A DNA stretch of 64,000 nt from positions 1 to 64,000 of the forward strand of contig NZ_JADEXD010000009.1 in the NCBI RefSeq assembly GCF_015207285.1. The letters are read 5' to 3'. The DNA is from Tychonema sp. LEGE 07203 (GTDB taxonomy: Bacteria > Cyanobacteriota > Cyanobacteriia > Cyanobacteriales > Microcoleaceae). Shown piece by piece: positions 6,115 to 38,651 of the stretch. The notes below the pieces were generated by a model. The model made no database searches, was not told the DNA's origin, and saw nothing but the letters and a program-made list of their open reading frames with translations. The number at the start of each line of letters is the position of its first letter. Position 1 is the stretch's first letter. Position numbers and translations under genes: made by a program.

Positions 6115-6940
6115 GTACAAATCAATCTCATCGGGTAGTAAGCTTTTTCCAGTTTGGCACCCTAGCTTTGAGTTATGCACTGCAGTAAGTCGGAGAACTT
6201 TCTGATAACTATTATGACAGGCTGATTGACAATTACGATCCGGGCGATCGCCCCCGCTCCTCATTTTACCTTGTCGAAGCAAAAGTAGCGATCGCCCGCT
6301 TAATTCTTTTTGAGGGCGATCGGCTTAAATCCTTGTCAGCACAAGGCTTTTAAGTTGATTGTCACCCCCGTCAGCTCTTTGAGTTTGTTCGCATACATTT
6401 TTGCCCACCTCTTTCTTCACCAGTCCTGGACGCACTCCCACCAAAGAAACCGGGTTTTTTACCGAATCTGCGGGCTGCAACCTCTGTATTTTCGTAAAAA
6501 AACCCGGTTTCTGGGCCCCCATGCGTAAGCCCTATTCACATAACGATCCGAATGATCCGACTTTTCCGACTTTTCGATCCGACTTTTCCGACTTGCTTTA
6601 GGCCGATCGTCCAAACATACTATTGAATAGCATCCACCAAAAGACAGAGAAAAGTATCAGTCATGCTGTCGATCTGCTCTATCTAAAGATAGATAGTAAA
6701 ACCAGGGCGTCCGACTTTTCCGACTTTAAGATCCGACTTTTCCGACTGACAAGAGCAAGGTAGGGGAGCCATGCTAGAGACACGGAAAAGATGCAGCCTC
6801 AAAAAAGAGCAACTGAATCCAATCTTTATCCGCATAAATACTGAGACCACACTGAGCTAGATATTTCCGGGATTGGGGTGCAACGAAAAAAGTAACAGAA
6901 GAATCTTTCTTCACATCGATCTTTCACCATTTTTTAAGTC
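6115..6940. repeat. Intergenic region with CCGACTTTTCCGACT repeats and a dispersed AACCCGG hairpin element
   Basis: At about 6450-6515 a copy of the hairpin element amplified at 35.3-36.3 kb is recognisable: inverted AAACCGGGTTTT / AAAACCCGGTTT arms around a spacer with ACCGAATCTGC and GCAACCTCTGTAT. Four copies of GATCCGACTTTTCCGACT (one starting GTCC) follow near 6554, 6576, 6709 and 6730, upstream of the sigma-factor gene. No gene is supported here. Confidence 0.6.
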
Positions 6941-7855
6941 ATGTCCAATTCTCAATCCGTTATTGCAACAGACATTCGGTATTGTCCAGAAGATATAGAG
7001 AAAGCCTTTTGGCAGCTATGGCAGCAGAATCGAGATTATCTTTACCGTTGCTGTCTCAGGTGGATGGGGGGGAATCCTGTTGATGCCGAAGAAGTGCTCA
7101 GTCGCGCCATGCTCAAAGCTTTGGATAAATTGCCAGACTATGCCGAAAAAATCACCAACCTCCGAGCTTGGCTCACCCGCTTAACCCATAATCTATGTAT
7201 AGATATACACCGAGAACGCCGCCGGAAAGCAATGCAAATGGAGGATATTGAAGAAATAGCTGCTACAGGAAATTCAGCATTTATTTCGGGTTTGGACTCT
7301 CCCCAAGAGGCACTTCTGCATCATGAGTTGGGGAAATACATTCGCCGCGCTATTGATACTCTTCCTTCTCGATTACGCAATCCGTTTATCCTGCGTTACT
7401 GGCACCAGATTGCCTATCAAGATATTGCCCAACAACTTGCTCTCTCGCTCAATAACGTTTACAAGCGCATCCAACAGGCACGAGAAATTCTGCAAAAGCG
7501 TTTGAGCAGGTATTTGTCAGGGTTGGATGATGCTTTGTTAGATTCCTCCGAGTCGTCTAAAAAGGGGGACTTTGGCTCGATCGCGGATGAATTTACTGTA
7601 GGGGTAGTGCCCCCGTGCCTACCCCGTCAAGATTCTGGGGCGATCGCGGCTGGGGCGATCGCGGCTGGGACAGCCACGGCTGGGGCGATCGCGGCTGGGG
7701 CGATCGCGGGGGGATTGCCCCTACAATCCGATGAAACGATCGCCCCCATCCCTCAAAACATTGGCGAGACAATTAATTATCAAGTAACAGCAATATGTCT
7801 AGAAACACTACATTCCGGGTGGTATCCCTCACTCAGTCCTCTGGGGTGGAGTTGA
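6941..7855 (+). CDS. ECF-like sigma-70 family RNA polymerase sigma factor
   Basis: The first 190 residues contain sigma region 2 (about 25-105, with DAEEVLSRAMLKAL and NLRAWLTRLTHNLCIDIHRERRR) and region 4 (about 140-190, with LPSRLRNPFILRYW and DIAQQLALSLNNVYKRIQQARE as the DNA-binding helix pair). It should direct RNA polymerase to a small regulon. The tail after about residue 220 is unlike sigma factors: it is translated repeat DNA giving AIAAG units, and it runs 61 bp into the next gene. The original stop was probably lost when the repeat entered. No convincing Shine-Dalgarno sequence precedes the ATG. The overlap suggests co-transcription with the TPR protein. Confidence 0.8.
   Translation: MSNSQSVIATDIRYCPEDIEKAFWQLWQQNRDYLYRCCLRWMGGNPVDAEEVLSRAMLKALDKLPDYAEKITNLRAWLTRLTHNLCIDIHRERRRKAMQMEDIEEIAATGNSAFISGLDSPQEALLHHELGKYIRRAIDTLPSRLRNPFILRYWHQIAYQDIAQQLALSLNNVYKRIQQAREILQKRLSRYLSGLDDALLDSSESSKKGDFGSIADEFTVGVVPPCLPRQDSGAIAAGAIAAGTATAGAIAAGAIAGGLPLQSDETIAPIPQNIGETINYQVTAICLETLHSGWYPSLSPLGWS
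7598..7722. repeat. HIP1-bearing repeat inserted in the sigma-factor reading frame
   Basis: Four GGGGCGATCGCGG units, some extended by CT to 15 bp, are interrupted by one diverged unit (GGGACAGCCACGGCT). They are bracketed by inverted arms, GTAGGGGTAGTGCCCC on the left and GGGATTGCCCCTACA on the right. The block keeps the frame and encodes Ala-Ile-Ala-Ala-Gly repeats. Confidence 0.8.
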
Positions 7856-9816
7856 ATGCTTACCTGGTTGCAGACTCCAAGCCAACCCGACAAGAGCAGA
7901 AGCTGAAAACATTAAGCGAGTACGTGCAGCAGTATCCATCTGGGTGGAAGAAACGGTTGGAATTGGCGAATCTGCTGTATGAAATGGGTCATATCGAGCA
8001 GGCGGTTGAGGAATATCGCCAAGTAATAGACCGGCAGCAACCACCATCGATCGCCGTCCACTTGCAATTGGCGAAACTCTTGCAGCTTATGGGACGAGAG
8101 GTTGAGGCAGTAGCGGTTTATGAAAGTGCCTTGACCAATGCACGCAATGAGGCGACTCGGCAGCATATCAGCGGATCGATCGCACTCTGTAGAAATGACA
8201 CTCAGGTAGCGATACTCGCTTTTGAGTCGGCGGCTTCCCTAGAACCAGATAATGCGGCTCACTGGCTGGCGTTGGGGCAGGTGCAAAGGGGGAGAGGGGA
8301 TGCGGTTGCAGCTTTGCGATCGTTCGATGCCGTTTTGTCGCTGCACCCGGATGATGTTGTAGCGCTGATTGACAGCTACGACGCGAGTCAGGCGGTGGGG
8401 AATCTGCGCCAAGCGCAGCGCAGGTTGAGCAAAGTGCTAGAGGTGGCTCCGGGTGATTTTCGAGCGCTCAAACGACTGGCGGATACTCGTTGCCGGATGA
8501 GATTGGTATCGGGTGAGGAAGGCAAACAGACTAAAAAAATAATTAGTTCTTTGCTGCAACAGGCTCCTGATGCGGCGGATGCCCGCGAGTTGCTGGCCTA
8601 TTATCACCTATTCCGGGGGGAGTCGGCTAACGGGATTGGGGTGTTGGAACGGTTTACTGAGGAACACCCGAATCATCCGAGGGGTTGGTATTCCTATGGG
8701 CGGTGTTTGTTCCATACGGGGGAATATCAGAAAGCGGCTGAGGCGATGCTGAAAGCTTATCGTCTCTATCCCCAGGATTGTGAAATTTATCGGGCGTTGT
8801 GCGAGATTTTGCCTGCTGCGGGGATGACTTCTTCCCCAGCTTCTCTAGATCCCCCCCAGCCCCCCTTAAAAAGGGGGGAGCTAGAGGAGGCAAAGTCTTC
8901 TAATTGCACGGGGGGAACTCCTCTGGAAGTCCCCCTTGTTAAGGGGGATTTAGGGGGATCTAACCCTCGTCTCCCAGCTCCTCTCGATCCCCCCCAGCCC
9001 CCCTTAAAAAGGGGGGAGCTAGAGGAGGCAAAGCCTTCTAATTGCAAGGGGGGAACTCCTCTGGAAGTCCCCCTTGTTAAGGGGGATTTAGGGGGATCTA
9101 ACCGTCGTCTCCCAGCTCCTCTCGATCCCCCCCAGCCCCCCTTAACAAGGGGGGAGCTAGAGCAGGCAAAGTCTTCTAATTGCACGGGGGGAACTCCTCT
9201 GGAAGTCCCCCTTGTTAAGGGGGATTTAGGGCGATCGAACCCTGAAGTAACCCTGGCATCAATAGTAGAAGAGATGCTCGATCGTTTTCCCGATCGCTGG
9301 AATGTGTGGACGACGGCGGGGCGGGTGTTGGTGGAAAGTTTTCAGGAGATCGATCGGGGGTGTGGTGTCTCTGTGCGGGGGACGCAACTTGAACCGCAGT
9401 TACCGGAAGCTTGGTTTTGTCACGGGCGGGTGTTGGCGCTGGCTCTTAAACACCGGGAGGCGGTGGAGGCTTTGGCGCAAGGATGGCAGTTGTTACCAGA
9501 AGAGGGGGGTTATCTGCAATCTGTATCTGCTGCGGTGTGGCTGGGGGAGAGTTATCGAGTGTTGGGGGATGAGGTGGCGAGCCGGAAATGGTTGGAAAAG
9601 GCTTGTCAGTCCCGGGAATTGATGGAGTTTGACCCGGCGATGGCTGGTTACTGGCAAGGAAGAGCGTTGTTGGGGTTGGGGGATGTGAGGGAGGCAGTGG
9701 AGGCGTATCGAAGTGCGCTGAGTCGGCGGTTGCTCTACCCTTTTCGCGGTGAGGTTGAGGAGGCTGTGAAACGGTTGAAAGGTAAGAAGCGAAAGGGCGA
9801 TCGGGCTAAAGCGTAG
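7795..9816 (+). CDS. Tetratricopeptide-repeat protein with an in-frame triplicated repeat insertion
   Basis: The product has 673 residues. TPR helices fill about 40-345 (for example WLALGQVQRGRGDAVAALRSFDAVL) and resume at about 490-660 (AWFCHGRVLALALKHREAVEAL, GYWQGRALLGLGDVREAVEAYRSAL). Between them, about residues 350-482 are three tandem 46-residue copies rich in Pro and Gly (DPPQPPLKRGE ... PLVKGDLGG), encoded by intergenic-type repeat DNA. TPR proteins are protein-protein scaffolds; a role with the overlapping sigma factor, for instance as a partner or anti-sigma-like regulator, is only inferred from position. The start at 7795 overlaps the sigma frame and has no clear Shine-Dalgarno sequence, so the start is uncertain. 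Confidence 0.72.
   Translation: MSRNTTFRVVSLTQSSGVELNAYLVADSKPTRQEQKLKTLSEYVQQYPSGWKKRLELANLLYEMGHIEQAVEEYRQVIDRQQPPSIAVHLQLAKLLQLMGREVEAVAVYESALTNARNEATRQHISGSIALCRNDTQVAILAFESAASLEPDNAAHWLALGQVQRGRGDAVAALRSFDAVLSLHPDDVVALIDSYDASQAVGNLRQAQRRLSKVLEVAPGDFRALKRLADTRCRMRLVSGEEGKQTKKIISSLLQQAPDAADARELLAYYHLFRGESANGIGVLERFTEEHPNHPRGWYSYGRCLFHTGEYQKAAEAMLKAYRLYPQDCEIYRALCEILPAAGMTSSPASLDPPQPPLKRGELEEAKSSNCTGGTPLEVPLVKGDLGGSNPRLPAPLDPPQPPLKRGELEEAKPSNCKGGTPLEVPLVKGDLGGSNRRLPAPLDPPQPPLTRGELEQAKSSNCTGGTPLEVPLVKGDLGRSNPEVTLASIVEEMLDRFPDRWNVWTTAGRVLVESFQEIDRGCGVSVRGTQLEPQLPEAWFCHGRVLALALKHREAVEALAQGWQLLPEEGGYLQSVSAAVWLGESYRVLGDEVASRKWLEKACQSRELMEFDPAMAGYWQGRALLGLGDVREAVEAYRSALSRRLLYPFRGEVEEAVKRLKGKKRKGDRAKA
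8846..9240. repeat. Three tandem 138-bp copies of a G/C-run palindromic repeat inside the TPR gene
   Basis: Copies begin near 8848, 8986 and 9124, exactly 138 bp (46 codons) apart. Each holds two palindromes, a C7-AG-C6 run facing GGGGGGAG and CCCCCTTGTTAAGGGGGAT, and they differ by a few substitutions. Related degenerate copies lie at about 4690-4862. Confidence 0.9.
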
Positions 9817-10002
9817 AGCCTTGACTTCTTAGGGAAGTCGGGGATCTGAACCTCTCAGAGTGCATTGAGTTAGGAAAAAACAGCCTCTAACTCGAAAAAT
9901 TCAGAAATTGACCTCTGGATTCGTCTTATAGGTGTAGAGACAAAAATCAAGTTTCGTCTCGACTAAAAACCAAAATCAAACTAATCTAAAAAGAGGCTAA
10001 TT

Positions 10003-10029
10003 ATGATGCGTAGATGGCGCGGATTCTAG
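10003..10029 (+). CDS. Mini-ORF A: 8-residue peptide MMRRWRGF
   Basis: ATG ATG CGT AGA TGG CGC GGA TTC TAG lies 6 bases after AGAGG. The peptide is MMRRWRGF, or MRRWRGF from the second ATG. Support is the parallel structure in cassette B: same leader, same CTAATT spacer, same position, a stop after 6-8 codons, and an Arg-plus-aromatic composition although the coding bases have diverged. Possible readings are a tiny precursor peptide, a signalling peptide, or a leader peptide for attenuation; it contains R-W-R, an Arg-X-Arg motif. Chance cannot be excluded at this length. No relative is known to me. Confidence 0.45.
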   Translation: MMRRWRGF

Positions 10030-10084
10030 AACCAATATTTTAATCAGCAGAACTACATTTGTAAGCTGATTAAATGTGATTGAA

Positions 10085-10120
10085 AGATGTAGGGTGGGCC
10101 TTCCCACCCTACATCTTTTG
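10085..10120 (+). terminator. Hairpin followed by TTTT after mini-ORF A
   Basis: AGATGTAGGGTGGG pairs perfectly with CCCACCCTACATCT around a CCTT loop (10085-10116), followed by TTTT, as in an intrinsic terminator. The GTAGGGTGGG core is also a common dispersed cyanobacterial palindrome, with another copy near 51211. Confidence 0.65.
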
Positions 10121-10181
10121 TTGCCGACCTTAATTCAATGACAAAATCTGGTGTGATTGGAAATTAGAGTTCTTGTGCTGA

Positions 10182-10434
10182 GGGTGCATTTATCTAGGAA
10201 AAAACAGCCCCTAACTCGAAAAATTCAGAAAATGACCTCTGGATTCGTCTTATAGGTGTAGAGACAAAAATAAATTTTATCAAGACATAAATTTCCAATT
10301 AAACTAATTTTAAAAAAGGCTAATTATGCGTTTTCGATACTTCTAAAATCAACTAATCAATCATCAAACTTACATTGGTAAGCTGCTCAAATGTGATTGA
10401 AAATCCACCTAGGGTGGGCAATGCCCACCCTACT
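10182..10434 (+). other. Mini-ORF cassette B
   Basis: This is the second copy of the cassette. The leader block (10198-10270) matches cassette A at almost every base. It is followed by a diverged AT-rich stretch, AAAAGG-CTAATT-ATG, a 6-codon ORF, a CTTAC-ATTG-GTAAG stem, the conserved AAATGTGATTGAAA, and a TAGGGTGGGC/GCCCACCCTA hairpin at 10410-10432 without a following T-run. Confidence 0.7.
10326..10346 (+). CDS. Mini-ORF B: 6-residue peptide MRFRYF
   Basis: ATG CGT TTT CGA TAC TTC TAA, 6 bases after an AAAAGG Shine-Dalgarno-like sequence. It shares start context, stop distance and composition (Arg plus aromatics, R-F-R motif) with mini-ORF A, while codons and residues differ. The start of an ABC exporter gene lies 158 bp downstream, so export of a product or control of the exporter are both reasonable ideas. 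Very short ORFs of this type escape normal gene calling; their reality rests on the duplicated architecture. Confidence 0.45.
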   Translation: MRFRYF

Positions 10435-10503
10435 TAGTAAGTATCTATCAAGATTATAACTGTAAAAGTATAAATCGTGCCCGCAGACAAACTCCCATAA
10501 CTC

Positions 10504-12171
10504 ATGGAACTTATTTGGTTCTTTAAAACCCTCAACAAATACATTGCCTCCTACAAATGGCAATTCATTTTACTCTTTACCTGCCTGATATTCGACGCAG
10601 CATTTGATTCAATCTTCCGAGCCAGCTTAAAATTTATCATCGATGCCGCCATCGTTCCCCAAAACTATAGTCTTCTGGTTCTAATCCTGTCATTGCTAGT
10701 CGTCGGAGCAATTCTATATGCCTGCATCGGCTTGCTAGGAATTTTCCTAGGAGCGCGTTTGGGAATTTTAATCACCAACAATATCCGATACTCTCTATTC
10801 GAGCATCTCCAAAGCCTTTCAATGGAGTTTTTTGGGCGACGTTCAGCCGGGGATATAGTCAATTGTCTCATCGCCGATGTCCAAAAGGTGGAAAATGGTG
10901 TAATTACAATGGGGCTGACAGTCGTTGTGTTAGAACTGTCTAACTTCCTATTTTCTCTGGTTTTCCTCTTCCTCCTCAACTGGCAATTAGCCCTGCTCAG
11001 TTTAATCGGTTTAACCATCTGCACCATTGCCCCAGCAAAAATTGCCAGCCTTGCCACCGAAGTCGGCTATAAGTTGCTGCAAAAAGAAGGACAGATTGCC
11101 AGCGTCGTCGAAGAGAATATCCTCTCGCAAACCGTTGTCAAGATATTCGGGCTGGAGAACCAAATGACTGAGGATTTTTCCACCGATTTGAATGACTTAA
11201 AACAGGTTTATGTCCGCGCAACCTTTCTCTCCTACTTAGTGCAGAAAGTCCCCATGATTGGTTTTGTCATGACGCAGCTTATCGTTTTAAGTATCGGTGC
11301 AGTGATGACCTACAGGAATATAATTTCTGTAGGGACTCTTACCTCATTTCAAGTTTTAATGGTAGGTTTGAATCTCAATATTCTTGGTTTAACTTCGTCA
11401 ATCCCGGCATTTATAGATGGAGTGGCAGGGCTGCAACGCATCAGCGATATATTATCAGAAACTCCGGCGATTCAGAATGCACCGGATGCGATTGATTTAC
11501 CTCACTTTTCCAGTGATATTAACTTTGACGATGTTACCTTTAGCTACTCCCAAGATAGAGGTGGAGTTAAAAATCTATCCCTAAAGATTCGCCAAGGAGA
11601 CTTCGCGGTATTTGTCGGTGAAAGTGGAGCAGGCAAAAGTACAATTGTCAACTTGCTAACGCGATTTTACGACCCGGATAAAGGACGCATTCTGTTTGAT
11701 GGCATTGATTTACGTCATGCAACAGTACGCTCCCTCCGTTCTCAAATTGGACTGGTTTCTCAGGATGTAATTCTCTTTAATTGCTCGGTGCGAGAAAACA
11801 TCCGCATGGGCTATCTAGAAGCCACTGACGAACAAGTCGAAGCCGCAGCCAAAGCCGCCGAGATTCACAAATTTATTTTGTCCTTACCCCAAGGCTACGA
11901 CACACCTGTGGGTGACAGGGGCGGACAGTTATCAGGGGGACAACGGCAAAGAATCGCCTTAGCTAGAGCCTTGGTAAGAAATCCAGCAATTCTGATTCTA
12001 GATGAAGCCACATCCGCCCTTGACCCCGCCACAGAAGCCGAAATCCTCGCCACCATCAAGCGCATTAGCAAAGAACGCACCGTGATTTTCATCACCCACC
12101 GCATAGCTAATGCATTGCTTGCGGATGTCACTTACGTGATGGAAAACGGCAGCTTGGTTGTTAGCGGTTGA
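10504..12171 (+). CDS. ABC exporter (fused membrane and ATPase domains)
   Basis: The 555-residue half-transporter is of the MsbA/lipid-drug-peptide exporter type. About residues 1-310 hold six membrane helices, with a Q-loop-facing segment FFGRRSAGDIVN. The ATPase domain starts near 335 with Walker A GESGAGKS (about 373), signature LSGGQ and Walker B LILDEATSALD, followed by the switch His in THR. There is no C39 peptidase domain. It ends at VMENGSLVVSG, some 25-35 residues shorter than usual, so the last helix may be missing. It follows the two mini-ORF cassettes and precedes a methyltransferase by 43 bp, suggesting one functional unit. The substrate is unknown. Confidence 0.88.
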   Translation: MELIWFFKTLNKYIASYKWQFILLFTCLIFDAAFDSIFRASLKFIIDAAIVPQNYSLLVLILSLLVVGAILYACIGLLGIFLGARLGILITNNIRYSLFEHLQSLSMEFFGRRSAGDIVNCLIADVQKVENGVITMGLTVVVLELSNFLFSLVFLFLLNWQLALLSLIGLTICTIAPAKIASLATEVGYKLLQKEGQIASVVEENILSQTVVKIFGLENQMTEDFSTDLNDLKQVYVRATFLSYLVQKVPMIGFVMTQLIVLSIGAVMTYRNIISVGTLTSFQVLMVGLNLNILGLTSSIPAFIDGVAGLQRISDILSETPAIQNAPDAIDLPHFSSDINFDDVTFSYSQDRGGVKNLSLKIRQGDFAVFVGESGAGKSTIVNLLTRFYDPDKGRILFDGIDLRHATVRSLRSQIGLVSQDVILFNCSVRENIRMGYLEATDEQVEAAAKAAEIHKFILSLPQGYDTPVGDRGGQLSGGQRQRIALARALVRNPAILILDEATSALDPATEAEILATIKRISKERTVIFITHRIANALLADVTYVMENGSLVVSG

Positions 12172-12214
12172 CACACAGATTTGACCTGTACTGAACATTT
12201 TGGAGTTAAAAATT

Positions 12215-13075
12215 ATGACCGATACAAATGATTACAAATGGCTAATTCCCTCTTCTCACAACCTAGGCTCGAAATCACTTGAAGAAGAGAAAGCTCTCTG
12301 GGATAAAAACCACGAAGATTATACCAACACCTCTTTCAGCCTCACCCAAGACCCCAAAATCTGCAAAAACTTAATCCGTCCAGAGTGTTCTCCCGGCTAT
12401 GATATTCCCAACTCGCCTGATATCAAAGTCCTAATTCCCGGTTGCGGCTCGGAAATTTATCTTCAGAAAACCTTACTAGAATTTTGCCCCCAAATTGGAC
12501 AAATCTACTGTACCGATTTTTCCAAAACAGCCATTGAAAAAGCACAAGCAGACTGGAGAAAAGCAGATGGAGATTCCCGACTCAACAATCGGCAAATCGT
12601 GTTTGAGGAAGTTGACTCCACGCGAATCACCGAACACAAACCTGAGTGGAACGAGAAATTTGATTACGTCCTACTCGCAAATTCCGTGGTTTCCAGTGAG
12701 GATAAAACCAACCGCGAGATGATTCGGGAATTTGGTAAAGTTCTCAAGCCCGGTGGCAAGATATACGGATATTTCCCAACCACGTTATGCTTCTTAGAAA
12801 TTGCCTATTTTAGTCGCAAACACGCTCACTGTGTTACAGAGGGATTTATCGATGTCTACGGCAATAAAGTTTGGGACGCTGAGTGGCAAGAGGCCCAGAT
12901 TTATTACACTCCCTTGCGGTTAAATCGCATTTTTAAAGAAGCGGGATTAAAACAACTCTGTTTGGAGATGCAGTTTTTGGACTATGAGCCTTTTGTTTCC
13001 ATGTTTAAAGAGATGATCGAGCATGACGACCCGGATATTTTTCTCTGGCATCTTCTAGCCCGGTATGAAAAATAG
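12215..13075 (+). CDS. Class I SAM-dependent methyltransferase
   Basis: The product has 286 residues. A Rossmann fold is indicated by motif I VLIPGCGSE (about residue 75), an acidic strand-2 end in IYCTDFSKTAIEKAQ, DYVLLANSVV (motif IV region), and KPGGKIYGYFPT (post-motif). A GGAG centred about 11 bases before the ATG supports this start over an in-frame TTG 15 bases earlier. It follows the ABC exporter closely and is likely co-transcribed. Candidate substrates are a peptide, a small metabolite or RNA; nothing in the sequence decides. It does not look like an Erm-type rRNA dimethylase. Confidence 0.82.
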   Translation: MTDTNDYKWLIPSSHNLGSKSLEEEKALWDKNHEDYTNTSFSLTQDPKICKNLIRPECSPGYDIPNSPDIKVLIPGCGSEIYLQKTLLEFCPQIGQIYCTDFSKTAIEKAQADWRKADGDSRLNNRQIVFEEVDSTRITEHKPEWNEKFDYVLLANSVVSSEDKTNREMIREFGKVLKPGGKIYGYFPTTLCFLEIAYFSRKHAHCVTEGFIDVYGNKVWDAEWQEAQIYYTPLRLNRIFKEAGLKQLCLEMQFLDYEPFVSMFKEMIEHDDPDIFLWHLLARYEK

Positions 13076-35268: not shown

Positions 35269-35330
35269 ATATTAGATACTTCTCATTGCTTGAAAATTTT
35301 GTTGTGATGAGTCTTTCAGTCGGTTTCAAC

Positions 35331-36255
35331 TGAGATGTTGCGTGGCAAAAACCGGGTTTATGACCGCAGATTTAGGATCGCAACCTATATTTTTTGTTCA
35401 GAAACCCGGTTTTTAAGAGTTTCACGGGTGCTCTTATGTCGGTTTGAGATGTTGCGTGGCAAAAACCGGGTTTATGACCGCAGATTTAGCCTCACAACCT
35501 ATATTTCTCGTTCAGAAACCCGGTTTTTAAGAGTTTCGCGACACGGTGCTCTTATGTCGGTTTCAACTGAGATGTTGCGTGGCAAAAACCGGGTTTATGA
35601 CCGCAGATTTAGGATCGCAACCTATATTTCTCGTTCAGAAACCCGGTTTTTAAGAGTTTCGCGACACGGTGCTCTTATGTCGGTTTCAACTGAGATGTTG
35701 CGTGGCAAAAACCGGGTTTATGACCGCAGATTTAGGATCGCACCTATATTTCTCGTTCAGAAACCCGGTTTTTAAGAGTTTCGCGACACGGTGGCAAAAA
35801 CCGGGTTTCTGACCGCAGATTTAGCCTCACAACCTATATTTCTCGTTCAGAAACCCGGTTTTTAAGAGTTTCGCGACACGGTGCTCTTCTGTCGGTTTCA
35901 ACTGAGATGTTGCGTGGCAAAAACCGGGTTTCTGACCGCAGATTTAGGATCGCAACCTATATTTCTCGTTCATAAACCCGGTTTTTAAGAGTTTCGCGAC
36001 ACGGTGCTCTTCTGTCGGTTTCAACTGAGATGTTGCGTGGCAAAAACCGGGTTTCTGACCGCAGATTTAGCCTCACAACCTATATTTCTCGTTCATAAAC
36101 CCGGTTTTTAAGAGTTTCGCGACACGGTGCTCTTCTGTCGGTTTCAACTGAGATATTGCACGGGGGCAAAAACCGGGTTTCTGACCGCAGATTTAGCCTC
36201 ACAACCTATATTTCTCGTTCATAAACCCGGTTTTTAAGAGTTTCGCGAAGGGTGC
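35331..36255. repeat. Eight-copy tandem array of a ~122-bp hairpin unit
   Basis: Units begin at TGGCAAAAACCGGGTTT near 35343, 35457, 35580, 35703, 35792, 35915, 36038 and 36165. Each has inverted arms AAAAACCGGGTTT / AAACCCGGTTTTT around GACCGCAGATTTAG, a two-way variable patch (GATCGCAACC or CCTCACAACC), CTATATTTCTCGTTC, then a linker AAGAGTTTCGCGACACGGTGC and TCGGTTTCAACTGAGATGTTG. One unit is short (89 bp). The open frame running through it is not considered a gene. Confidence 0.92.
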
Positions 36256-36351
36256 TCTTCTGTCGGTTTCAACCGAATGCAAGCTCTCTCGACGGGGGTT
36301 GAAACGAACGGCGGACTTTTGGGTCGGCGCGAGAATTTTCGCTAAACTACC

Positions 36352-37619: not shown

Positions 37620-38174
37620 GTGAGATTGGTGATTCTGGGAGGGCCAGGAGCGGGAAAGGGAACTCAGGCACAACAACTGTGCAGCAATTTGAGCATCCCT
37701 TTGCTGGCATTAGGGGACATTCTGCGGGCCGAAATCGCAGCTAAAACAGACTTGGGCAAGTTGGCGGTGCCTTATGTGGAATCGGGCGATTTAGTTCCTG
37801 ATGAAATTTTGATTAAGTTTATCGGCCGCCGGCTGTTGCTGTGGGATGTCTTTAATGGCTGGGTGTTGGAGGGCTATCCGCGAACGGCTTTTCAAGCTGA
37901 GGAGTTGGATTTTTTATTAGATGGTTTGGCGCAAGAGCTAGATTGGGCAGTTTGGCTGAGGGTGCCCAATGAGGTTTTGTTGAGCCGATCGATCGAGCGC
38001 GATCGCTCGGACGACGAGCCAGAAATTTTACAGCGCCGGCTCGATTTGTTCGAGGAACGCACTATTCCTATTTTAGAGTATTACGAATATCGCCACAAAC
38101 TGTTAACTGTCAACGGCGACCAATCGCCCGAACAAGTGCAGCAAGATATTCTAAAAATTGTCAGCAGTCAGTAG
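37620..38174 (+). CDS. adk: Adenylate kinase (short form)
   Basis: It catalyses ATP + AMP = 2 ADP. The GTG at 37620 is preferred over a TTG 30 bases earlier because AGGAG stands 8 bases before it and the product then begins MRLVILGGPGAGKGTQAQQL, as the family does. Further motifs are the AMP-binding GDILRAEI, VLEGYPRTAFQAEEL, and the short lid with RDRSDDEPEILQRRLDLFEE. Length is 184 residues, without the long zinc lid. Its stop is followed at once by a heptamer array. Confidence 0.9.
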   Translation: MRLVILGGPGAGKGTQAQQLCSNLSIPLLALGDILRAEIAAKTDLGKLAVPYVESGDLVPDEILIKFIGRRLLLWDVFNGWVLEGYPRTAFQAEELDFLLDGLAQELDWAVWLRVPNEVLLSRSIERDRSDDEPEILQRRLDLFEERTIPILEYYEYRHKLLTVNGDQSPEQVQQDILKIVSSQ

Positions 38175-38489
38175 TCAGTAGTCAGCAGTCAGCAGTCAGC
38201 AGTCAGCAGTCAGCAGTCAGCAGTCAGCAGTCAGCAGTCAGTAGTCAGTAGTCAGCAGTCAGTAGTCAGTAGTCAGTAGTCAGTAGTCAGCAGTCAGCAG
38301 TCAGCAGTCAGCAGTCAGCAGTCAGTAGTCAGTAGTCAGTAGTCAGTAGTCAGTAGTCAGCAGTCAGTAGTCAGCAGTCAATAGTCAGTAGTCAGTAGTC
38401 AGTAGTCAGTAGTCAGCAGTCAATAGTCAGTAGTCAGCAGTCAGTAGTCAGTAGTCAGTAGTCAGTAGTCAGTAGTCAGTAGTCAGTAG
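38160..38489. repeat. GTCAGCA/GTCAGTA heptanucleotide array (~47 units)
   Basis: An unbroken 7-bp tandem array starts at the last codons of adk. Units alternate irregularly between C and T at the sixth base (with rare CAATA variants). Cyanobacterial short tandemly repeated (STRR-type) heptamers are known; this one is unusually long. Confidence 0.95.
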
Positions 38490-38511: not shown

Positions 38512-38651
38512 AATAACAAGTAACGAATAACAAATAACAAATAACAAATAACAAACAACAAATAACAAACAACCAACAACAAATAACAAACAACAAATAA
38601 CAAACAACAAATAACAAACAACCAACAACAAATAACAAATAACAAATAACT
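38512..38651. repeat. AAATAAC/AAACAAC heptanucleotide array (~20 units)
   Basis: A second, different 7-bp array, separated from the first by about 20 bp, ends 2 bp before the rph start codon and forms the presumed 5' untranslated region of rph. Confidence 0.95.

What the first reader, a model, noticed from the sequence alone, without database searches (positions are those of the whole stretch)
9859..10434. Duplicated cassettes encoding 6-8 residue Arg/aromatic peptides ahead of an ABC exporter and methyltransferase
Two ~320-bp cassettes share an almost identical ~95-bp leader, the same AGG-CTAATT-ATG start context, and a conserved AAATGTGATTGAAA plus hairpin after the stop. Between them the ORFs differ in sequence yet encode the same kind of peptide: MMRRWRGF and MRFRYF. 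Conserved context with a variable core is how precursor-peptide families look. Tiny precursors exist: biarylitide genes encode the pentapeptide MRYYH. The exporter and SAM methyltransferase that follow would suit maturation and export. No P450, radical-SAM or other cyclising enzyme is present next to them, so a RiPP reading remains a hypothesis.
Basis: partly seen in the sequence, partly recalled or inferred. Interest (0 to 1): 0.85.

Follow-up and report, generated by a model that had tools for sequence, protein, structure and literature searches.

The report
Tiny cationic-aromatic peptide genes with exporter
Some cyanobacteria appear to carry genes only 18 to 36 bases long that would make 5- to 11-residue peptides of arginine and aromatic amino acids next to a matching exporter and methyltransferase, which would be a new family of ribosome-made mini-peptides; no product has been observed yet.

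Summary
In detail: two cassettes (9854-10126, 10178-10440) encode MMRRWRGF and MRFRYF. The shared leader is not peptide-specific. It is a promoter-like block (P1) found across cyanobacteria before many unrelated genes, including three ECF sigma homologues, and is probably the promoter of the ECF sigma encoded just upstream. The mini-ORFs still look real. I found nine more: MRFGRPF, MRRFY, MRFRRGF, MFKVRIW, MWRPIRFF (P1-driven) and MLRGF, MRRFWRF, MFFFFWRRW, MLLYYWRFWRF (other contexts). All 11 end in F, W or Y; none of their 69 residues after Met is D, E, N, Q, S, T, H or C (33% in background mini-ORFs); all six Arg codons occur. Between related cassettes flanks are up to 92% identical, ORFs 24-61%. 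The exporters beside them form one clade (support 99/98): 9 of 10 have a mini-ORF, 9 of 10 the methyltransferase; 0 of 7 outside have either. Best reading: leaderless, hypervariable ribosomal mini-peptides, exported by a dedicated ABC exporter, probably methylated and antagonistic. Translation, export and activity are inferred. Rivals: exported signal peptide; regulatory leader or ribosome-acting minigene.

The parts
6710..6779 (+). P2 block (TCCGACTTTTCCGACT repeats, CTGACA ... CATGCTAGAG), promoter-like, ahead of the sigma gene
   Evidence: same block ahead of sigma (L035), of the exporter (L033, L034, L068, L143, L148), of mini-ORF+exporter (L149) and of mini-ORF+sigma (L066)
6941..7855 (+). 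ECF sigma factor (304 aa)
   Evidence: Pfam Sigma70_r2/r4_2; NCBIfam TIGR02937 sigma70-ECF 86.5 bits against cut-off 42.9
7795..9816 (+). TPR-repeat protein (673 aa); its frame overlaps the sigma gene by 61 nt
   Evidence: the pair is conserved in G008, G012, G195, D3b, G010 and L066
9854..9954 (+). leader of cassette 1; holds P1 element AACTC...CGTCT at 9889-9926
10003..10029 (+). mini-ORF 1, MMRRWRGF (or MRRWRGF from the second ATG, 10006)
10072..10118 (+). AAATGTGATTGAAA tail and hairpin after mini-ORF 1
10178..10278 (+). leader of cassette 2; P1 element at 10213-10250
10326..10346 (+). mini-ORF 2, MRFRYF
10389..10432 (+). tail and hairpin after mini-ORF 2
10504..12171 (+). ABC exporter (555 aa, membrane and ATPase domains fused, no peptidase domain in the Pfam scan)
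   Evidence: Pfam ABC_membrane + ABC_tran; clade of mini-ORF-linked exporters
12200..13075 (+). class I SAM methyltransferase (first ATG at 12215)
   Evidence: Pfam Methyltransf_12/25/11; model pLDDT 75, pTM 0.80; structural matches to methyltransferases, best RebM Z 18.0

Best explanation
The mini-ORFs are genuine genes of 15 to 33 coding bases plus stop. Each makes, without leader peptide, a short cationic-aromatic peptide that keeps its N-terminal (formyl-)Met and ends in an aromatic residue. In the window and its close relatives they are transcribed from P1, a promoter recognised by the adjacent ECF sigma factor together with the TPR protein; the same regulon drives other small cargo proteins. 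The peptide is carried out by the dedicated ABC exporter and, at all but one exporter locus, is a substrate of the methyltransferase. The likely role is antagonism at membranes: short Arg/aromatic peptides are a known synthetic antimicrobial type. Shown here by sequence: the ORF family, conservation of start, stop and residue class, hypervariability against conserved flanks, linkage to one exporter clade. Inferred: sigma-P1 recognition, translation, export, methylation, activity.
For: (1) Eleven mini-ORFs in ten genomes or contigs. (2) Upstream of 11 exporters, 10 of 19 Shine-Dalgarno-preceded ATG mini-ORFs of 4-12 aa (nested starts merged) have the signature; in all DNA then held, members excluded, 9 of 374 do, one of these being the L066 member recognised afterwards. 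(3) Against 384 background mini-ORFs: C-terminal aromatic 11 of 11 (background 12.2%); small residue at position 2 in 0 of 11 (40%); D/E/N/Q/S/T/H/C in 0 of 69 residues (33%); mean R+F+W+Y 0.79 against 0.18, reached by 0 of 200,000 random sets. (4) All six Arg codons and both Phe codons are used (ten of the 11 ORFs): residue class is kept, not DNA. (5) D3b against G195: flanks 84% and 92%, ORF 48%; window cassette 1 against UBA9251: upstream 61%, downstream 92%, ORF 24%. (6) Exporter tree: one clade of ten, 99/98, 9 with mini-ORF; none of 7 outside exporters has a signature mini-ORF in 1500 nt upstream; G095 has one exporter of each kind. (7) Methyltransferase beside 9 of 10 inside, 0 of 7 outside in the stretches held; its relatives in G003 and G189 adjoin NRPS and MFS genes. 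(8) P1 precedes sigma homologues (35-42% identical) in L042, L059, L087, and 29 of 54 P1 stretches hold a sigma or TPR homologue. (9) Among all R/W peptides up to 7 residues the shortest active have 4-5 (PMC8140080, abstract).
Against: No expression, ribosome or mass-spectrometry data. The tests were made after the pattern was seen, and four of the 11 (MLRGF, MRRFWRF, MFFFFWRRW, MLLYYWRFWRF) were picked by eye or by composition; the seven P1-driven ones were fixed by position and all conform. MLRGF has only one Arg and one aromatic. G005 (Tychonema LEGE 06208) keeps exporter and methyltransferase but no signature mini-ORF. G193 has a mini-ORF and exporter but no methyltransferase in 12 kb. The L066 member lies ahead of sigma-TPR on a 3.9-kb contig with no exporter in view. 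The fold does not tell the methyltransferase's substrate. One peptide, MRFRYF, fits the loose biarylitide search rule (5-8 residues, aromatic at 3 and 5).
Confidence: 0.6

Rival explanations
1. Signal peptide. The mini-peptide is exported, returns to the cytoplasm and binds the TPR protein, which controls the ECF sigma factor; P1 then amplifies its own signal. This would be a peptide quorum-sensing circuit like Gram-positive RRNPP systems (RRNPP recalled, not looked up), with sequence variation giving strain specificity.
For: Lengths of 5-11 residues; sigma and TPR genes adjoin the mini-ORF in the window, G008, G012, D3b, G195 and L066, and a TPR end is seen in UBA9251; P1 drives both mini-ORFs and sigma homologues.
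Against: Sigma-TPR also stands beside a sister-clade exporter with ATP-grasp genes instead of a mini-ORF (G010). At G216 and G193 no sigma or TPR homologue is seen, at G095 only a weak TPR match (40% over 131 aa, about 8 kb away) (the G216 contig is cut near the mini-ORF). P1 drives many other cargo genes. The peptides are very hydrophobic and cationic for a freely diffusing signal (judgement).
Confidence: 0.15
2. Regulatory leader or ribosome-acting minigene. Translation of the mini-ORF, not an exported product, matters: either stalling controls a downstream terminator, as the hexapeptide MsrDL (MYLIFM) controls msrD, or the minigene peptide acts on its own ribosome as short macrolide-resistance peptides do (the latter recalled).
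For: MsrDL shows that a six-codon ORF before an ABC-protein gene can be an attenuator (PMC10314930, passages). A hairpin follows both window mini-ORFs, the first with a CTTTTG tail. Four of 11 peptides carry an R-x-R or K-x-R pattern. In the window, G095, G216 and G193 no other gene was recognised between the last mini-ORF and the exporter (G216 has a run of N there).
Against: In G008, G012, D3b, G195 and UBA9251 another P1 cargo gene lies between mini-ORF and exporter, and P2 sits directly before the exporter in G008, D3b and UBA9251. The next gene differs from locus to locus. Stalling depends on particular residues, while these are hypervariable. No + strand terminator is called in the window cassettes.
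Confidence: 0.15
3. Non-coding: the cassettes are duplicated promoter and repeat DNA or a small RNA, and the ORFs are accidents.
For: Leader and hairpin are elements found elsewhere. P1 alone does not imply a mini-ORF: 80 of 86 copies are not followed by one.
Against:: class-conserved residues in unrelated DNA contexts, use of all Arg codons, linkage to one exporter clade apart from one degenerate copy. No Rfam family reaches its gathering score.
Confidence: 0.07

Closest known systems
Biarylitides (bytA, MxYxY/H pentapeptides)
   Same: 18-bp precursor genes, two-residue leader at most, Met start, aromatic residues, several copies in some strains, missed by gene callers (PMC13417212, passages)
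   Different: No P450 in the ten scanned neighbours; motif MxYxY/H absent (only MRFRYF has aromatics at 3 and 5); Arg-rich; dedicated ABC exporter clade and methyltransferase
Microcin C (mccA, mostly 7-residue precursors)
   Same: Heptapeptide-sized gene, formyl-Met matters, sequence not conserved, exporter in the minimal gene set (PMC6495379, passages)
   Different: Universal C-terminal Asn there, C-terminal aromatic here; no adenylating enzyme of the MccB kind in the ten scanned neighbours
Synthetic short Arg/Trp antimicrobial peptides (RRWWRF type)
   Same: Length and Arg plus aromatic composition; MRRFWRF and MLLYYWRFWRF are near look-alikes (PMC8140080 abstract; PMC2937036 search listing only)
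   Different: Those are synthetic; here they would be gene-encoded with export machinery
MsrDL attenuator hexapeptide
   Same: Six-codon ORF upstream of an ABC-protein gene
   Different: Defined arrest sequence acting on one downstream gene; here variable sequences, in five loci separated from the exporter by another P1 gene
Sister exporters with ATP-grasp (Ddl-type) ligase genes
   Same: 63-69% identical exporter; sigma homologue nearby in G010, G031 and G075
   Different: ATP-grasp genes in five of the seven (G010, G031, G075, G095b, G339), a GNAT gene in the Nostoc plasmid, nothing recognised in G199; no mini-ORF or methyltransferase. An amidinotransferase in G075 is my reading of a protein whose only Pfam hit is below cut-off (ADI, E 0.00058)

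Membership tests
Biarylitide RiPPs | precursor motif MxYxY/H (reported variant with W at position 3) | tested here: not met
   none of 11 peptides has Y or W at position 3 with an aromatic or H at 5; MRFRYF has F3 and Y5, so it meets only the loose search rule; motif from PMC13417212 passages
Biarylitide RiPPs | cross-linking P450 next to the precursor | tested here: not met
   no P450 among the ten neighbours scanned by Pfam; the rest of the genome was not scanned, and distant P450s are reported for that family
Microcin C-like | C-terminal Asn | tested here: not met
   11 of 11 end in F, W or Y
Microcin C-like | MccB (ThiF-like) adenylating enzyme in the cluster | tested here: not met
   none among the ten neighbours scanned; rest of genome not scanned
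RiPP in general | ribosomally made precursor | tested here: inconclusive
   coding signature strong; translation itself not testable here
RiPP in general | enzymatic post-translational modification | not testable with these tools
   methyltransferase beside 9 of 10 exporters of the clade, but its substrate is unknown
Attenuator leader peptide | mini-ORF co-transcribed with the gene it controls, with a terminator between | tested here: inconclusive
   against it in five exporter loci with another P1 gene between; possible by layout in the window, G095, G216 and G193
RRNPP-like peptide signalling | cytoplasmic TPR receptor binding the peptide | not testable with these tools
   a TPR gene or its end is beside the mini-ORF in seven of ten loci; binding not testable
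ECF sigma factors | regions 2 and 4 only, ECF model | tested here: met
Class I SAM methyltransferases | Rossmann-like fold with SAM site | tested here: met
   the LIPxxGS stretch is invariant in 11 of 11 aligned homologues

The most novel reading that the evidence does not exclude
A categorically new class of natural product: unleadered, essentially uncrosslinked ribosomal mini-peptides, the direct translation products of genes down to 18 bp, diversified under selection and exported by a dedicated ABC exporter whose sister lineages probably carry enzyme-made small peptides; possibly doubling as the signal that switches on the ECF sigma regulon producing them.
Probability: 0.3. Interest if true: 0.93.

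Novelty: new variant of a known kind. Interest (0 to 1): 0.82.

Why it matters
Genes of 5 to 11 codons are invisible to annotation. If translated, these would stand beside the 18-bp biarylitide genes, called the smallest known genes (PMC13417212, passages), but in cyanobacteria and without the P450 hallmark. They would be gene-encoded counterparts of synthetic Arg/Trp antimicrobials, with a natural library of variants and an exporter. The P1 element also opens a cyanobacterial ECF-sigma regulon of fast-changing cargo genes to direct study.

Tried and rejected
A first P1 pattern was mis-spaced by me and found nothing; corrected and rerun. Rfam gave no family (one listed hit, 21.5 bits against 50). 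Solved structures: only weak matches to the methyltransferase (best E 0.014); the exporter resembles many ABCB/MsbA-type exporters, which names no substrate. Viral contigs: no relative of the exporter. Plasmids: no methyltransferase; one exporter, Nostoc commune HK-02 plasmid4, 64%, with a GNAT gene and no signature mini-ORF. The class-wide methyltransferase search (E 1e-20) added nothing (1 of 388, the window's own genome); the families of G195, G193, G199 and G216 added no new locus. G199 (exporter 72%) has no mini-ORF. G005 looks degenerate: P1 and a Shine-Dalgarno but no signature mini-ORF. Of the nine background mini-ORFs with the signature, L066 became a member; MQRSW (L155) and MFYRF (L132) lie inside larger frames; the other six were not looked at further. 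The structure match list holds many methyltransferases within 2 Z of each other, so no substrate is named. Paper searches for a description of such cyanobacterial mini-genes listed none: (listings; open-access PMC library, no preprints).

Full report
1. What is there. The window belongs to a cyanobacterium held as G000 (6.6 Mb). The gene order is ECF sigma factor (6941-7855), overlapping TPR protein (7795-9816), cassette 1 (MMRRWRGF), cassette 2 (MRFRYF), ABC exporter (10504-12171), methyltransferase (12200-13075).

2. The leader is a promoter element. Searching the cassette in 59 relatives gave matches in 15, mostly to the leader alone. Reading them showed the same block before quite different genes. 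A pattern for its core, AACTC..AAAATTC...AA.........RRA..YGTCT, occurs in 54 stretches of the genome collection, 52 of them cyanobacterial (Nostoc, Planktothrix, Okeania, Prochloron and others; the two others, L082 and L092, look like chance), and, with up to one mismatch, in 16 of 61 same-family genomes against none for the reversed-pattern control. In G000 the two cassettes are the only copies found. Among 86 distinct copies then held, the genes that follow include small proteins with signal-like starts (my reading), beta/gamma-crystallin and C2-domain proteins, a PatG-type subtilase (L043), and in L042, L059 and L087 homologues of the window's sigma factor, 35-42% identical. 29 of the 54 stretches contain a homologue of the sigma (21) or TPR (23) protein. 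The CGTCT core resembles ECF -10 elements (recalled). I infer that P1 is the promoter of this ECF sigma family.

3. The mini-ORFs are a family. Only 6 of the 86 P1 copies are followed by a mini-ORF with a Shine-Dalgarno site: the two of the window, MRFGRPF (G008, = L086), MRRFY (G012), MRFRRGF (Laspinema D3b, = G207), MFKVRIW (UBA9251). Searching the methyltransferase (11 of 388 genomes of the order at E 1e-20) and the exporter (15 of 388 at E 1e-170) gave MWRPIRFF (G195, P1-driven), MLRGF (G095), MRRFWRF (G216) and MFFFFWRRW (G193). The stretches of G095, G216 and G193 hold no P1 with up to four mismatches, so there the mini-ORF sits in different surrounding DNA. A background scan then turned up MLLYYWRFWRF directly ahead of sigma-TPR in a Coleofasciculus contig (L066). 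In G095 and L066 the mini-ORF follows a second promoter-like block, P2, which elsewhere precedes the sigma gene or the exporter.

4. Tests. Upstream of 11 exporters, 10 of 19 Shine-Dalgarno-preceded mini-ORFs have a C-terminal aromatic, at least half R/K/F/W/Y and at least one R/K; the nine others do not. In all DNA then held, members excluded, 9 of 374 do, one of them the L066 member. For 11 members against 384 background ORFs: C-terminal aromatic 11 of 11 against 12.2%; position 2 small 0 of 11 against 40%; D/E/N/Q/S/T/H/C 0 of 69 residues against 33%; mean R+F+W+Y 0.794 against 0.179, not reached in 200,000 resamplings. These are after-the-fact tests, the background includes ORFs inside genes, and four members were chosen partly by look; the seven P1-driven ones were fixed by position and all conform. 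A large second residue means methionine aminopeptidase should leave Met in place (recalled rule). Arg is coded by all six codons (CGT 7, CGC 1, CGA 1, CGG 2, AGA 9, AGG 1) and Phe by both (ten ORFs, L066 not included). Between related cassettes the flanks are conserved and the ORF is not (up, down, ORF): D3b/G195 84, 92, 48%; G008/D3b 89, 70, 61; the two window cassettes 80, 72, 33; window cassette 1/UBA9251 61, 92, 24. Conserved start, stop and class with a variable core is how diversifying peptides look.

5. Linkage. A tree of 17 exporters puts all mini-ORF-linked ones in one clade of ten (99/98); nine have the mini-ORF, the tenth is G005, whose cassette is degenerate. None of the seven outside has a signature mini-ORF in the 1500 nt upstream. 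Five of the seven adjoin ATP-grasp ligase genes (G010, G031, G075, G095b, G339), the Nostoc plasmid a GNAT gene; for G199 I recognised nothing. G095 carries one exporter of each kind. The methyltransferase accompanies 9 of 10 in the clade and 0 of 7 outside, in the stretches held. Its relatives in G003 and G189 adjoin NRPS genes and an MFS transporter gene, so the family seems to work with peptide products. The fold is a class I methyltransferase (model pLDDT 75, pTM 0.80, 11-row alignment), best match RebM (Z 18.0, 205 aligned, rmsd 3.4) with 49 further entries down to Z 16.2: no substrate follows.

6. Mechanism. Most likely: sigma-TPR activity opens P1; the mini-ORF is translated from a good Shine-Dalgarno; the (formyl-)Met-cationic-aromatic peptide is methylated and exported. 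Its composition matches short synthetic Arg/aromatic antimicrobials, for which activity begins at 4-5 residues (PMC8140080, abstract and outline). Steps from transcription onward are inferred. The strongest point against the leader rival is that in five loci another P1 gene separates the mini-ORF from the exporter; against the signal rival, that sigma-TPR also stands beside an exporter without a mini-ORF (G010).

7. Known or new. It is not filed as a biarylitide (no MxYxY/H, no P450 in ten scanned neighbours; only MRFRYF fits the loose aromatic-at-3-and-5 rule) nor as a microcin C (no C-terminal Asn, no MccB among the scanned neighbours). Cyanobacterial sigma factors fused to TPR_MalT are described (PMC11119718, passages), but here the TPR protein is a separate gene. 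My searches listed nothing describing these mini-genes; the library is open-access only.

Noticed in passing
window 9889-9926 and 10213-10250; L042-L095: P1, a conserved promoter-like element across cyanobacteria before fast-changing cargo genes (beta/gamma-crystallin, C2-domain, small proteins) and ECF sigma homologues; looks like an undescribed ECF-sigma regulon.
   Followed up: partly
L043 3238-5247 (similar starts in L065, L105, L123): P1 stands before a subtilase with PatG_D and PatG_C domains, the kind of protease/macrocyclase found in cyanobactin pathways: a peptide-maturation enzyme under the same promoter type.
   Followed up: partly
window 6710-6779; L033, L034, L035, L066, L068, L143, L148, L149: P2 block with TCCGACTTTTCCGACT repeats and CATGATAGA ahead of sigma, exporter or mini-ORF genes; links the sigma and exporter operons.
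   Followed up: partly
window 8835-9243: 138-bp tandem repeat, 3 copies, inside the TPR coding frame, adding Pro-rich repeats.
   Followed up: no
window 38160-38489 and 38512-38650: Long heptanucleotide arrays (GTCAGTA x47, AATAACA x20).
   Followed up: no
window 35319-36273: Large 123-bp tandem array with longer-period versions.
   Followed up: no
L158, L159, L160, L161, L038: Sister exporters clustered with Ddl-like ATP-grasp ligases, in G010 also a FeeM-like GNAT: probably an uncharacterised small-peptide natural product pathway.
   Followed up: partly
L036 and L137: The methyltransferase family next to NRPS and MFS genes in G003 and G189.
   Followed up: partly
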